A stretch of DNA of 23,913 nt, from positions 1-23,913 of the IMG/VR virus record IMGVR_UViG_3300050343_000129. One strand, 5' to 3'. Position numbers and translations under genes: made by a program. Under the pieces are notes generated by a model. The model was not told the origin of the DNA. It made no database searches and saw only the letters and a list, made by a program, of their open reading frames with translations. This document shows positions 181 to 2,725 of the stretch, piece after piece (the first letter of the stretch is position 1; each line of letters starts with the position of its first letter). The stretch comes from a virus.

Positions 181-285
181 AGTAGCTAGCAATTCACTTT
201 ATGAGTGGTAACCTATACCCCCGTCAGTGCTGCATCTACACCTCGCTGTTTGGTTTACCCTAATTAAGCTACTCGTCTAGCTACT
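181..285 (-). ncRNA. structured RNA candidate closed by a 9-bp inverted repeat
   Basis: AGTAGCTAG (181-189) and CTAGCTACT (277-285) are perfect inverted repeats closing about 105 nt. Inside, GGTAACC (207-213) pairs with GGTTTACC (252-259) with a one-base bulge, a CACT/AGTG hairpin lies at 195-207, and a short helix is possible around 225-248. The right arm contains the stop codon of the adjacent leftward gene, so the fold would form the immediate 3' end of that transcript. Together with the tRNA-like element at 99-177 and the palindromes at 1-95 it makes a 280-nt structured non-coding tail. The function is unknown. Confidence 0.4.
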
Positions 286-469
286 TGCGTCGCCAAGCTC
301 TGTGCACTGATGCACTTACTTCTTGGCTAACTATTTGTATTTCAAGTACTTGCTTGTTAGCGATGATCGGTACATAACTGTAGTCTTGAACTGTGCTACA
401 AGGAACACAAGTTTTATATCCATAACCTACTCTTATTGGGTGTACTTTTTCGCCGCATTTACAATACAT
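281..469 (-). CDS. small four-cysteine (zinc-ribbon-like) phage protein
   Basis: This 62-aa protein begins MYCKCGEKVHPIR and has four cysteines at about positions 3, 5, 21 and 24 (CxC and CxxC), consistent with a small zinc-binding knuckle. A VSQEV segment follows and the C-terminus is basic (WRRK). Similar short proteins with a CxxK(I/V)HP(I/M)R start, KTCV.CS core and (I/L)VSQE segment occur in marine phages, as I recall them; none has a function I can name. The start lies about 20 bases downstream of promoter-like element 489-527 with an A/T-rich leader. It is the last gene of the leftward series and its stop lies inside the closing stem of the RNA candidate at 181-285. It may bind nucleic acid. 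Confidence 0.8.
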   Translation of the reverse strand: MYCKCGEKVHPIRVGYGYKTCVPCSTVQDYSYVPIIANKQVLEIQIVSQEVSASVHRAWRRK

Positions 470-488
470 ATATTTAATTTAATTTGTT

Positions 489-527
489 ACATTTATATTA
501 TCGATATGTATTCGTATTTGTTTTGTA
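489..527 (-). promoter_or_regulatory. early promoter-like repeat, copy 1
   Basis: Written on the plus strand: ACATTTATATTATCG, exactly 9 bases, CGTATTT, 2 bases, TTTGTA. Read leftward, a TACAAA..AAATACG box precedes a CGATAATATAAATGT box. The 62-aa gene starts at 469, just downstream. Five further copies occur before other leftward genes with the same spacing. Confidence 0.75.
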
Positions 528-659
528 TTAATACATATCTTGTTGCCACTTTGGTATCTCGGAATTATATCTAGTCCAATACTCTCGCTCTATCGCCTCG
601 ATTTCTACCAGTTTAATCTTGTGATGACTAAACTTCCGTTTCTTTCTGGATTTCTTCAT
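528..659 (-). CDS. 43-aa basic small protein, unrecognised
   Basis: A reading frame of 43 codons starts MKKSRKKRKF, followed by a charged, probably helical stretch (KLVEIEAIEREYWTRY) and ends WQQDMY. The first ten residues include seven Lys/Arg, suggesting nucleic-acid binding. It overlaps the end of the upstream 65-aa gene by 32 nt and its TAA stop directly precedes the next promoter-like repeat, so it fills the gap exactly. That fit is the main argument for it being real, as neighbouring genes are packed the same way. I do not recognise a family. Confidence 0.6.
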   Translation of the reverse strand: MKKSRKKRKFSHHKIKLVEIEAIEREYWTRYNSEIPKWQQDMY

Positions 660-825
660 ACATTTTTTTGATCGCTAGGTACATTACATGAGCATGTAGC
701 TCATTATAAGAGTCGCCTTCAACGTGAAACTCTGCTATTTGCCAGTGAATGCTGTCATACATTAATTCTTTAGTGACGTCAGCAATACCTTGTGCTACCT
801 CGTCGATTTCTTTCATTTTACTCAT
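628..825 (-). CDS. 65-aa acidic small protein, unrecognised
   Basis: The chosen start is ATG at 825 (MSKMKEIDEV), two bases after the stop of the upstream gene. A longer frame to 867 would overlap that gene and is less likely. The sequence is acidic and looks mainly helical, with a histidine-containing middle (HWQIAEFHVEG, NELHAHVMYLAIKKMYEEI). No catalytic motif is evident. It is the second gene of the transcription unit starting at the element 1017-1055 and is probably translationally coupled to the 60-aa gene before it. The function is unknown. Confidence 0.75.
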   Translation of the reverse strand: MSKMKEIDEVAQGIADVTKELMYDSIHWQIAEFHVEGDSYNELHAHVMYLAIKKMYEEIQKETEV

Positions 826-827
826 AG

Positions 828-1010
828 TTATGCTTTTATATATGTTAAACCTTTGTAGTTGAACCATTCAGATATACCGATTTGATCGCTACCGTCTTTG
901 TCATTGTATTTAAATGCAAATGTTGGTGGTAGATTGCCAAGATTGTATGGCTTATAGGTAATACCGTTTAGTTTTAATTTTTTCTCGTGGAGTTTTTTAA
1001 GTTTATTCAT
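828..1010 (-). CDS. 60-aa small protein, unrecognised
   Basis: This 60-aa protein starts MNKLKKLHEKKLKLNGI. A lysine-rich helix is followed by a short beta-like segment (YKPYNLGNLPPTFAFKYND) and a C-terminal part rich in aromatics (SEWFNYKGLTYIKA). The start follows the repeated promoter-like element 1017-1055 by about 7 bases through an ACAATAT leader. It is first in a three-gene unit (828-1010, 628-825, 528-659). No family or activity is recognised. Confidence 0.75.
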   Translation of the reverse strand: MNKLKKLHEKKLKLNGITYKPYNLGNLPPTFAFKYNDKDGSDQIGISEWFNYKGLTYIKA

Positions 1011-1016
1011 ATATTG

Positions 1017-1055
1017 TTTATTATATTATCGTTAGTTATTCGTATTTACTTTGTA
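1017..1055 (-). promoter_or_regulatory. early promoter-like repeat, copy 2
   Basis: The same two-box layout with a 9-base spacer: TATATTATCG box ending at 1031, CGTATTT at 1041-1047, TTTGTA at 1050-1055. The TAA stop of the upstream gene (1046-1048) is embedded in the distal box, so coding and promoter sequence share bases. Confidence 0.75.
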
Positions 1056-1258
1056 TAATCAACATTCGGTTGTATACTTGCAGCGACACCTTGTCTGAAT
1101 TGCCACTCTCGTCTGCGGTATTCGTGATCGGTGCACCACTTACGCCATGCTTTACTTACTGTATTGTTAGTACCGTATTTCGCTTCGAACTCTTCGACTT
1201 GCTTTAGTTTAGCGTCGATTTGGTCTTGAGGATAGTCGTTGAATTTAGTAGAAGTCAT
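1046..1258 (-). CDS. 70-aa charged small protein, unrecognised
   Basis: This 70-aa protein starts MTSTKFNDYPQDQIDAKLKQ. The first half is acidic and helical. The second half is basic and aromatic (SKAWRKWCTDHEYRRREWQFRQ), suggesting contact with nucleic acid or another protein. It overlaps the 3' end of the 39-aa gene by 14 nt, implying coupled translation, and its stop codon lies inside the next promoter-like repeat. The function is not recognised. Confidence 0.7.
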   Translation of the reverse strand: MTSTKFNDYPQDQIDAKLKQVEEFEAKYGTNNTVSKAWRKWCTDHEYRRREWQFRQGVAASIQPNVDYTK

Positions 1259-1364
1259 AGTATATGTCTAAAACGGTTGATTTTTCTTCGCTAGTCAGTT
1301 TAGAGTAGCACTTGTTATATTTTCTGTAGCTTATTTTAAGCAGATAGGTATTCATATGTCCCAT
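1245..1364 (-). CDS. 39-aa small protein, unrecognised
   Basis: A 39-codon frame starts MGHMNTYLLKISYRKYNK and ends LDIYYDFY; an internal ATG at 1355 is an alternative start. It is tyrosine-rich, with a TSEEKSTVLDIYY segment that could form a helix. The start lies about 12 bases downstream of promoter-like element 1376-1414 through an AATAAATAATACT leader like the other early genes. It overlaps the next gene by 14 nt. The length is below usual annotation cut-offs, but position and leader support it. Confidence 0.55.
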   Translation of the reverse strand: MGHMNTYLLKISYRKYNKCYSKLTSEEKSTVLDIYYDFY

Positions 1365-1375
1365 AGTATTATTTA

Positions 1376-1414
1376 TTTATTATATTATCGTTAATTATTC
1401 GTATTTGTTTTGTG
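1376..1414 (-). promoter_or_regulatory. early promoter-like repeat, copy 3
   Basis: TATATTATCG box (to 1390), 9-base spacer, CGTATTT (1400-1406), then TTTGTG (1409-1414; last base differs from the other copies). It precedes the 39-aa gene starting at 1364. The stop of the upstream membrane peptide is immediately adjacent at 1415. Confidence 0.75.
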
Positions 1415-1564
1415 TTATCCGTAGATTCCAAAGCTTGTTGGTGCTCCGTTTTGTATCATATTTATTATTAATGAAATGGAACCAAAGATTACTAGAGTTA
1501 CTTGAGCATAAGCGATCACGCCTATTACTATGTTAAGTGCTTTGTTGTGGTGAAATTTTCTCAT
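1415..1564 (-). CDS. 49-aa single-pass membrane peptide
   Basis: A 49-codon frame starts MRKFHHNKAL. A hydrophobic segment at about residues 10-36 (LNIVIGVIAYAQVTLVIFGS onward) is long enough to cross a membrane. The tail is polar (NGAPTSFGIYG) and the N-terminus basic, so the positive end is predicted inside. The start is one base from the stop of the upstream 44-aa gene, with a TAAATAATATG leader. Small membrane peptides in phage early regions often alter the host envelope or block superinfection, but nothing here shows which. Confidence 0.65.
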   Translation of the reverse strand: MRKFHHNKALNIVIGVIAYAQVTLVIFGSISLIINMIQNGAPTSFGIYG

Positions 1565-1565
1565 A

Positions 1566-1700
1566 TTATTTATTTGTTGATTTATAAAATTCTATTCTAT
1601 CTAAGACATCTTGTCTAGTTATTTCACCTTCCATTTGTTTACCAATGTAGTGAGTCATGTCGATTTCTTTGCCGTTAGGACAAGTTAAAGTATATATCAT
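1566..1700 (-). CDS. 44-aa small protein, unrecognised
   Basis: The preferred start is ATG at 1700 (MIYTLTCPNGKEIDMTH), preceded by AAAAATAATAATATG like the other leaders. A longer in-frame version starting at 1769 would translate straight through the tRNA-like hairpin at 1715-1755 and is less likely. The protein is a short beta segment followed by a charged helix (ITRQDVLDRIEFYKSTNK). It sits downstream of element 1808-1846 and is followed one base later by the membrane peptide. No function is recognised. Confidence 0.6.
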   Translation of the reverse strand: MIYTLTCPNGKEIDMTHYIGKQMEGEITRQDVLDRIEFYKSTNK

Positions 1701-1714
1701 ATTATTATTTTTAG

Positions 1715-1755
1715 TTGACATAGTGAGAATCGAACTCACATAAACCATTATGTCA
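1715..1755 (-). ncRNA. minimal tRNA-like hairpin (acceptor stem plus T-arm only)
   Basis: On the minus strand TGACATA (1755-1749) pairs perfectly with TATGTCA (1722-1716), followed by an A like a discriminator base. Between them are 9 linker bases and a perfect T-arm, GTGAG-TTCGATT-CTCAC (1739-1723). There is no room for D- or anticodon arms, so the element is a 41-nt minihelix of the tRNA upper half. No better full-length tRNA can be drawn upstream. It lies in the leader between promoter-like element 1808-1846 and the 44-aa gene. It could be a processing signal, a tRNA mimic or a decayed tRNA. Confidence 0.5.
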
Positions 1756-1807
1756 TTACTTGTTCGCATTTTTATACTTATAGAAACAAGTGGAACTTAA
1801 AGTTGTT

Positions 1808-1846
1808 ACATTTATATTATCGATTACCGATCGTATTTAATCTGTA
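1808..1846 (-). promoter_or_regulatory. early promoter-like repeat, copy 4
   Basis: ACATTTATATTATCG (1808-1822), 9 bases, CGTATTT (1832-1838), 2 bases, TCTGTA (1841-1846). The upstream gene's stop codon at 1837-1839 lies inside the element. It drives the leftward unit with the tRNA-like hairpin, the 44-aa gene and the membrane peptide. Confidence 0.75.
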
Positions 1847-2148
1847 ACTGGATTTCTGTCTAGGATTAAATGTCTAGTATTTTTAGGCATATCGGTTGAC
1901 TGTGACCAGTATTGTCTCTTAATCCAGCAAGGCATTATAGATAACTTAGGTAACATTACTTTCAACACTTCGTCGTGATTGTAAGTTCTCTTAACACCTT
2001 TCTTGTTAGTGAAAGAGATGATTTGATTTCTACCGAGCCAAGACTTTCTTACTACAAAGTTTTTTCTTTCGATTGGTGGATAGATCGCACTTAATTCTTC
2101 AGTGCTTAGTTTACTGATAGCTTTCGCTAATAATTCTTTATTACTCAT
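1837..2148 (-). CDS. 103-aa small protein, unrecognised
   Basis: This is the longest gene of the leftward block (103 aa, start MSNKELLAKAISKLSTEE). An N-terminal helix is followed by a basic, aromatic middle (RKSWLGRNQIISFTNKKG, KRTYNHDEV) and a C-terminus with WIKRQYW. The isoelectric point must be high, which fits a nucleic-acid or host-protein binder. The start follows element 2166-2204 by 17 bases through an AATAAATATAATATG leader. No catalytic signature or known family is recognised. Confidence 0.75.
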   Translation of the reverse strand: MSNKELLAKAISKLSTEELSAIYPPIERKNFVVRKSWLGRNQIISFTNKKGVKRTYNHDEVLKVMLPKLSIMPCWIKRQYWSQSTDMPKNTRHLILDRNPVTD

Positions 2149-2165
2149 ATTATATTTATTTATTT

Positions 2166-2204
2166 ACATTTATATTATCGTTTACTCTTCGTATTTAGTT
2201 TGTA
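2166..2204 (-). promoter_or_regulatory. early promoter-like repeat, copy 5
   Basis: ACATTTATATTATCG (2166-2180), 9 bases, CGTATTT (2190-2196), AG, TTTGTA (2199-2204). It precedes the 103-aa gene starting at 2148. The upstream 46-aa gene ends two bases beyond it, at 2206. Confidence 0.75.
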
Positions 2205-2205
2205 T

Positions 2206-2346
2206 TTAACATTCTTCAACTTTCAATACATCGTCTAATTTATAGAAATTAAAGACTTCTTGAATTGTGTTTACTTTTAAGTATTTAACATAGTTTGTAG
2301 GAATTCCATTTTTATTCCAAGTATTCTCTAAAGTTATTTTAAACAT
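2206..2346 (-). CDS. 46-aa small protein, unrecognised
   Basis: A 46-codon frame starts MFKITLENTWNKNGIP, continues NYVKYLKVNTIQEVFNFYKL and ends DDVLKVEEC. It looks like a compact alpha/beta mini-protein. It lies exactly between promoter-like copies 6 and 5, starting 20 bases after copy 6 with an A-rich leader (AACAAATAACAATACT). It is the first leftward gene beside the divergent region and therefore probably among the first expressed. No family is recognised. Confidence 0.6.
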   Translation of the reverse strand: MFKITLENTWNKNGIPTNYVKYLKVNTIQEVFNFYKLDDVLKVEEC

Positions 2347-2366
2347 AGTATTGTTATTTGTTTGTT

Positions 2367-2405
2367 ACATATATATTATCGTATACCAATCGTATTAGGT
2401 TTGTA
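2367..2405 (-). promoter_or_regulatory. early promoter-like repeat, copy 6 (first of the leftward block)
   Basis: ACATATATATTATCG (2367-2381), 9 bases, CGTATTA (2391-2397), GG, TTTGTA (2400-2405). It is the outermost copy, bordering the divergent non-coding region. It carries more differences from the consensus than the others but keeps the spacing. Confidence 0.7.
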
Positions 2406-2725
2406 AAGTAGTACTATTGTTTAGTAGTAGAAAAATAGTTGTAGGTATAATGCAAGGTGTCATTGTGTCATACAATAAGACAACACGTCATATGTCATAG
2501 TGTCATGACGATCAGTCACTTACTTAGTACACTGAACTGGTTTGGTACGGTGATATAGGTAATGCTATACGGGATACAGTATGTGCAGTAAAAAAGGTAA
2601 AACATTTACAGGAAATTATTTTAGTTAGTAGTGATGGATAGCATGTAGTAGTGCGGTTGCAGACATATATACAACGCAAAACGAGAATGACTAGGGGGGC
2701 TGGGTAAATAAAAACAGTTTCCCAT
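2406..2725. other. divergent intergenic control region, possible origin
   Basis: This 320-bp gap separates the leftward small genes from the rightward virion genes. No convincing gene is seen; the only start-to-stop frames are 16 codons or shorter. It holds GTCAT iterons (2457-2506), the palindromes TAGTACTA (2409-2416) and GTCATGAC (2502-2509), a TATAAT hexamer at 2446-2451 without a clear -35 partner, and two GGGATAC copies (one near 2570, one from 2728). The arrangement suits a regulatory switch or replication origin, but nothing proves either. Confidence 0.45.
2457..2506 (+). repeat. GTCAT iteron cluster
   Basis: Five copies of GTCAT lie within 50 bp: GTGTCAT at 2457-2463, 2465-2471 and 2500-2506, CGTCAT at 2486-2491 and TGTCAT at 2493-2498. 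The last copy merges into the palindrome GTCATGAC. Clustered direct repeats beside divergent promoters usually bind a repressor or replication initiator; which applies here is unknown. Confidence 0.5.

What the first reader, a model, noticed from the sequence alone, without database searches (positions are those of the whole stretch)
489..2405. Six-copy two-box element with invariant 9-base spacing before leftward small-gene units
Copies at 489, 1017, 1376, 1808, 2166 and 2367 share ACATTTATATTATCG (slightly varied), exactly 9 variable bases, CGTATTT, 2 bases and TTTGTA. The spacing never changes while the spacer sequence does, as expected of protein-DNA recognition. Every copy precedes a leftward gene by a short A-rich leader. 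I saw none in the rightward block. It fits neither the sigma70 consensus nor the usual Bacteroidota -33/-7 motif, so a phage-encoded polymerase is a candidate reader. crAss-like phages are known to carry a virion RNA polymerase for early genes; whether this phage does cannot be seen in the window.
Basis: partly seen in the sequence, partly recalled or inferred. Interest (0 to 1): 0.75.

Follow-up and report, generated by a model that had tools for sequence, protein, structure and literature searches.

The report
Phage sigma-factor promoters before small genes
Six copies of one DNA signal in this bacteriophage look like on-switches for small, probably early genes, and the switch is most likely thrown by a sigma factor that the phage brings itself: all 24 motif-bearing relatives read in full carry both signal and sigma factor, and 14 motif-free relatives carry neither.

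Summary
In detail: six copies, all on the minus strand at 494-2405, none in the rest of the window. The element is family-wide: at least 119 IMG/VR stretches carry it, each genome's copies lying almost entirely on one strand in a 3-10 kb cluster. On the coding strand it reads TACAAA-N3-AATACGA-N8-nGATAATATA. A purine sits at one fixed downstream position in 502/510 copies. Taking that as +1 puts CAAACT at -35 and GATAAT at -10 with a 17-bp spacer, a sigma70-type layout plus an extra box near -25. By nearest relatives the phage is not crAss-like but a podovirus related to Cellulophaga phi38:1. No polymerase was found. Instead all 24 motif genomes encode a sigma70-family factor, absent from 14 motif-free relatives. 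Of 73 sigma loci with 6 kb upstream, 69 have at least 3 copies; two of the other four carry a variant with the same -10 but a swapped -35 (ACGGACTT). The sigma gene itself has the motif just before its ATG in 19/106 loci (control 0.4%). Most likely these are promoters read by host RNA polymerase carrying the phage sigma factor. Nothing was tested at the bench; how sigma is first expressed is unknown.

The parts
494..527 (-). Promoter copy 1 (GATAATATA 494-502; AATACGA 512-518; TACAAA 522-527); predicted +1 at 490 (G)
   Evidence: 0 mismatches of 22; ORF 281-469 begins 21 nt downstream
1022..1055 (-). Promoter copy 2; predicted +1 at 1018 (A)
   Evidence: 0 mismatches; ORF 828-1010 begins 8 nt downstream
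1381..1414 (-). Promoter copy 3; predicted +1 at 1377 (A)
   Evidence: 1 mismatch; ORF 1245-1364 begins 13 nt downstream
1813..1846 (-). Promoter copy 4; predicted +1 at 1809 (G)
   Evidence: 1 mismatch; ORF 1566-1769 begins 40 nt downstream
2171..2204 (-). Promoter copy 5; predicted +1 at 2167 (G)
   Evidence: 0 mismatches; ORF 1837-2148 begins 19 nt downstream
2372..2405 (-). Promoter copy 6, nearest the divergent point; predicted +1 at 2368 (G)
   Evidence: 0 mismatches; ORF 2206-2346 begins 22 nt downstream
1837..2148 (-). 103-aa small gene under copy 5, unknown function; relatives in 22 of 24 motif genomes by blastp, not in MW202828 or phi38:1
   Evidence: no Pfam or PHROGs match
281..469 (-). 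62-aa ORF under copy 1
   Evidence: no family match
828..1010 (-). 60-aa ORF under copy 2
1245..1364 (-). 39-aa ORF under copy 3
1566..1769 (-). 67-aa ORF under copy 4
2206..2346 (-). 46-aa ORF under copy 6
2406..2725 (.). Divergent region between the leftward small-gene arm and the rightward arm (holin, tail fibres, GroEL, terminase, portal); no host-type promoter recognised here

Best explanation
The six copies are promoters for short leftward transcription units of a virulent podovirus of Bacteroidota, probably Flavobacteriaceae. They are read by host core RNA polymerase carrying a phage-encoded sigma70-family factor of about 250 aa. That gene lies downstream in the same arm, outside this window, next to a co-conserved 206-aa HTH protein. 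SHOWN by computation: the motif, its strand and place, its co-occurrence with the sigma gene, the sigma homology, the fixed purine, and motif copies directly before some sigma genes. INFERRED: that the sigma binds the motif (region 2 reading nGATAATATA, region 4 reading ACAAA at -35), that transcription starts at the purine, and that sigma amplifies its own expression where its gene carries the motif. The AATACGA box near -25 may be read by the 206-aa protein or by sigma itself; unresolved. First expression of sigma (host promoter, or sigma carried in the virion) is unknown.
For: (1) Chance excluded. (2) In 50 contigs all exact copies are on one strand and the reversed-pattern control gives 0; relaxed scans show about 6-12 copies clustered in one arm. 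(3) Sigma homologue in 24/24 motif contigs, none in MW202828 or phi38:1; Pfam Sigma70_r2 and r4; profile against solved structures SigA 1.8e-10 and FliA over nearly its full length 2.4e-10; model matches sigmaA chains, Foldseek E 1.8e-6. (4) Relatives chosen by terminase: MW202828, phi38:1 and 12 MW-type contigs have neither sigma nor motif; the 4 contigs with sigma belong to the motif family, 3 with copies found. (5) Chosen by sigma: 69/73 loci with 6 kb upstream have at least 3 copies. (6) Motif 3-6 nt before the sigma ATG in 19/106, control 0.4%. (7) Purine at position 28 in 502/510 copies; ORF start within 120 nt in 474/510 against 265/510 at random places; this gives -10 at -12..-7 and a 17-bp spacer. 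(8) Lineage-specific changes run through all copies of a genome: the base before GATAAT is C, G, A or T by lineage, and some genomes swap the whole -35, as expected when one reader sets the sequence. (9) In 84,980 prokaryote genomes only two single, chance-like sites match; known flavobacterial sigma motifs differ (PMC9723704).
Against: No binding or transcription data exist. Sigma is not the only gene tracking the motif: primase-helicase, ERF, the 206-aa HTH protein and others do too, so co-occurrence alone does not single it out. The covariation of sigma residue 53 (D/E) with C before GATAAT (14 of 15 acidic are C) was the best of many columns and is not significant on the tree. No sigma residue cleanly explains the -35 swap. 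A conserved box inside the spacer is unusual for sigma70. Promoters near the divergent point read by a sigma that must first be made pose a start-up problem, and no host-type promoter was found in the right place.
Confidence: 0.8

Rival explanations
1. Promoters read by a phage-encoded RNA polymerase (virion type as in N4 or crAss-like phages, or T7 type).
For: The relatives have a giant last structural protein, about 2,100-4,000 aa, with a conserved C-terminal 700-aa domain, where N4 and crAss phages keep their virion polymerase.
Against: No T7-type polymerase in 17 contigs (positive control T7 rings) and no beta-prime family match. The conserved domain has no match in solved structures and no conserved DxDGD-like motif. 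The -35/-10 layout with a 17-bp spacer is that of sigma70-type promoters. A very divergent polymerase cannot be excluded.
Confidence: 0.05
2. Promoters read by host RNA polymerase with a host sigma factor only.
For: Promoters beside the divergent point should be usable on entry; TATAwwTG at the 3' end loosely resembles the host TAnnTTTG box.
Against: No host-genome set of such sites; the six motifs mapped in F. psychrophilum differ; the related MW202828 group, with similar structural genes, has no copies.
Confidence: 0.07
3. Operators of a DNA-binding regulator (for example the 206-aa HTH protein) lying on otherwise weak promoters, with sigma irrelevant to their sequence.
For: The 206-aa HTH protein is present in 24/24 motif genomes and usually lies beside the sigma gene; MW202828 has a perfect 16-bp palindrome at the same places, which looks like an operator.
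Against: The motif is asymmetric and strictly oriented; its fixed distance to a purine and its -10/-35 positions are those of a core promoter.
Confidence: 0.08

Closest known systems
Phage-encoded sigma factors that redirect host polymerase (SPO1 gp28 middle genes, T4 gp55 late genes; from general knowledge)
   Same: A sigma-like phage protein with a dedicated promoter sequence spread over a gene block
   Different: Unrelated phages; here the sites sit in the small-gene block beside the divergent point, in an uncultivated Bacteroidota phage family, with an extra box near -25 and lineage swaps of the -35 box
Sigma-70 group factors, nearest in full-length match FliA (sigma28)
   Same: Regions 2 and 4 match; the -10 CGATAA recalls the FliA -10 GCCGATAA (from general knowledge)
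   Different: Different -35 box, plus AATACGA near -25; no flagellar link
Marine Bacteroidetes phage group 2 of Nishimura et al. 2017 (PMC5332604)
   Same: phi38:1-related genomes with GroEL; one gene (OBV_N00025 gene20) was noted to resemble a sigma-70 factor
   Different: No promoter motif or regulon is described there
N4 and crAss-like virion RNA polymerase early promoters
   Same: Repeated promoters before small early genes
   Different: No polymerase found; sites are not hairpins
Bacteroidota -33/-7 promoter (TTTG / TAnnTTTG)
   Same: Host group
   Different: Sequence and spacing differ (PMC9723704, PMC6847099)

Membership tests
Sigma70-type promoter | -10 hexamer near TATAAT with A at -11 and T at -7 | tested here: met
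   GATAAT, conserved in sequence and place, if +1 is the conserved purine
Sigma70-type promoter | -35 element about 17 bp upstream | tested here: met
   ACAAA(CT) or ACGGACTT at -36 to -29, spacer 17 bp
Sigma70-type promoter | Measured start site at the predicted +1 | not testable with these tools
   Only the purine bias 502/510
Phage-encoded sigma regulon | Phage carries a sigma-family gene | tested here: met
   24/24 motif contigs. In the window's own contig the gene is off the end; it is present in near-identical G016
Phage-encoded sigma regulon | Motif and sigma gene co-occur in both directions of search | tested here: met
Phage-encoded sigma regulon | Sigma binds the motif and directs transcription | not testable with these tools
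   Needs biochemistry
Phage-encoded sigma regulon | Sigma residues covary with motif bases independently of descent | tested here: inconclusive
   Residue 53 against the base before GATAAT: 1-4 independent pairs agree, 0 oppose, too few
N4 or crAss-like virion RNA polymerase system | Phage encodes the RNA polymerase | tested here: not met
   a very divergent enzyme is not excluded
Crassvirales | Nearest relatives by terminase and portal are crAss-like | tested here: not met
   elemo, phi38:1, Calle, Panino, Gundel; one weak crAss muzzle match below cut-off
Bacteroidota sigmaA promoter | TAnnTTTG at -7 | tested here: not met
   Motif consensus; none at the small-gene starts

The most novel reading that the evidence does not exclude
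A two-factor phage transcription switch: the sigma factor reads the -10 and the adjacent 206-aa HTH protein reads the box at -25 and/or helps at -35. Sigma (made at trace level or carried in the virion) starts its own feed-forward loop, and whole lineages have re-coded all their promoters together, changing the base before GATAAT or swapping the entire -35 box, while keeping the -10.
Probability: 0.2. Interest if true: 0.72.

Novelty: new variant of a known kind. Interest (0 to 1): 0.55.

Why it matters
It gives a concrete, testable transcription programme for a widespread uncultivated family of aquatic Bacteroidota phages (hundreds of IMG/VR contigs): a sigma factor, its promoter, its start site and its regulon. 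The motif is a simple marker that finds the small-gene (probably early) block and the sigma gene in unannotated contigs. The co-ordinated changes of all promoters in a genome (base before GATAAT; -35 swap) are a natural experiment on how a sigma factor and its promoters change together, and could yield orthogonal promoter parts for Bacteroidota, where standard ones fail.

Tried and rejected
Giant last virion protein as a virion polymerase: conserved C-terminal domain aligned, no PDB, Pfam or catalytic-motif support. T7-type or beta-prime polymerase elsewhere: none. Host promoter: no host regulon, no TAnnTTTG at the right place. Hairpin promoter: at most a 3-bp CGA...TCG pairing by eye, so rejected for this family. 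Sigma-motif covariation: residue 53 suggestive but not significant on the tree. Single-residue explanation of the -35 swap in region 4 or in the 206-aa protein: none found. Fold of the 206-aa protein: confident model, no PDB match. Single exact hits with unrelated flanks (for example L008, L020, L023, L078, L083, L104) were set aside as chance. A first position table was built on too few copies through a slicing slip and was redone.
Full report
Observation. The six copies are real. Five match TATATTATCG-N9-CGTATTT exactly, with no match in 100 dinucleotide shuffles; the sixth differs by one base. Read on the coding (minus) strand, all six fit TACAAA-N3-AATACGA-N9-GATAATATA with 0-1 mismatch of 22. 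No other place in the window does better than 5 mismatches. All six point left, each towards an ORF whose ATG is 8-40 nt from the predicted start site. The A-rich leaders are normal for Flavobacterium, which lacks Shine-Dalgarno sites and favours A-rich, Kozak-like starts (PMC6847099).

What phage this is. The rightward block encodes a holin, tail fibres, GroEL, terminase and portal. Terminase and portal are nearest to MW202828 (63% and 56%); other relatives are Maribacter phage Panino, Flavobacterium elemo phages and Cellulophaga phi38:1. It is thus a podovirus related to phi38:1 (Pervagoviridae), not a crAss-like phage by nearest kin. PMC5332604 places phi38:1 and the IAS virus (crAss-like, from general knowledge) in one loose group, and one protein has a sub-threshold match to a crAss muzzle domain, so a distant tie exists. 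G016 (IMGVR_UViG_3300047157_000041, 66 kb) carries a nearly identical region and supplies the missing arms.

The motif is a family trait. A scan of IMG/VR gave at least 119 stretches; a few are chance hits inside genes. In 50 contigs all exact copies are on one strand and the reversed-pattern control is zero. Relaxed scans of 24 contigs show mostly 6-12 copies in a 3-10 kb cluster at the start of one arm, with an occasional opposite copy at the divergent point (G018, G043, G048). The 24 contigs share structural and replication genes. MW202828 and phi38:1 share mainly the structural genes and have no copies.

The candidate reader. Genes shared by all or nearly all motif contigs but absent from MW202828 and phi38:1 include a primase-helicase, an ERF recombinase, a 206-aa HTH protein and a 250-aa protein that is plainly a sigma70-family factor. 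Evidence: Pfam regions 2 and 4 (above the curated cut-off for region 2 in G011 and for region 4 in G021), profile matches to SigA (1.8e-10) and to FliA over nearly its full length (2.4e-10), and a predicted structure whose best matches are sigmaA chains. Co-occurrence was tested three ways. From the motif: 24/24 have sigma. From the terminase: the four contigs in which sigma was found belong to the motif family, three with copies found; MW202828, phi38:1 and twelve MW-type contigs have neither. Five other terminase-selected contigs are fragments without sigma, one of which (G056) has motif copies at its end. From sigma: 69 of 73 loci with at least 6 kb upstream have three or more copies. Of the four exceptions, L451 and L416 carry a variant motif, L402 has two copies, and G051 was read across contig ends.

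Layout. The base four positions past GATAATATA is a purine in 502 of 510 copies. If it is +1, GATAAT lies at -12 to -7 and CAAACT at -35 to -30, with a 17-bp spacer: the layout of a sigma70-type promoter. AATACGA then lies at -28 to -22, inside the spacer, which is unusual. ORF starts follow within 120 nt in 474 of 510 copies, median 22 nt from the motif end. In G032 and G052 the sigma ATG begins exactly at the predicted +1, which would make those messages leaderless. In 19 of 106 loci the sigma gene is itself preceded by the motif 3-6 nt before its ATG (control windows 0.4%), which suggests autoregulation; several of these loci are close relatives, so they are not 19 independent cases.

Lineage changes. 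The base before GATAAT is C in the window but mostly G, A or T in other lineages, often uniform within a genome. A second class, ACGGACTT-N16-GATAATATA, replaces the -35 and lacks the AATACGA box in some 20 contigs. On the sigma tree this class needs up to four changes, but one origin is not rejected (p-AU 0.066). Attempts to tie these changes to sigma residues gave leads, not proof. Acidic residue 53 goes with C in 14 of 15 cases, but with too few independent pairs. All 15 class-2 sigmas have E at residue 228, which my reading of the HMM alignment places opposite E. coli Q589, but so do many class-1 sigmas. The 206-aa protein folds confidently (pLDDT 88) with no PDB match.

Rivals. A phage polymerase: none found, with a T7 control that rings; the giant virion protein's conserved domain shows no polymerase signature. 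A host sigma: no host-genome motif set, known flavobacterial motifs differ (PMC9723704), and no TAnnTTTG promoter lies at the small-gene starts. An operator: the strict orientation and spacing argue for a core promoter.

Limits. Expression timing is inferred from gene position only. If sigma reads these promoters it must first be present, so they may be delayed-early or middle promoters, or sigma may enter with the virion. The window's own contig is a 24-kb fragment and does not itself hold the sigma gene. The literature search (open-access papers only) found one passing mention of a sigma-like gene in a phi38:1-related marine genome (PMC5332604) and no description of this motif.

Noticed in passing
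L125:43745-49889 (MW202828.1): The motif-free relative MW202828 has a perfect 16-bp palindrome GTGTCGTTAACGACAC, 14 exact copies in its rightward arm, many directly before small genes; possibly an operator or hairpin promoter.
   Followed up: partly
L468-L474 (G061, G062): MW-type relatives carry GTGTCTTTGAAGACAC / GTGTCTTCAAAGACAC near-palindromes dispersed over the genome rather than in one block.
   Followed up: no
L127:11963, 14916, 24416 and others (phi38:1): phi38:1 has eight copies of TTTGATAGTGTT on one strand, several 11-18 nt before leftward gene starts: perhaps its own promoter or operator element.
   Followed up: no
L156:16004-18172 and relatives (alignment A1): The giant last structural protein has a strongly conserved, uncharacterised C-terminal domain of about 700 aa with no match in solved structures.
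   Followed up: partly
L161-L167 (G027, 129,537 bases): Two motif clusters about 62 kb apart and duplicated genes suggest that this contig holds two phage genomes' worth of sequence, or a head-to-tail assembly.
   Followed up: no
L158:9954-10571, L131:162-779 and relatives: A 206-aa HTH protein near sigma, present in all 24 motif genomes; a confident model without any PDB match.
   Followed up: partly
window 2406-2725: The divergent region has no recognisable host-type promoter for either arm; what starts the rightward (structural) arm is unknown.
   Followed up: partly
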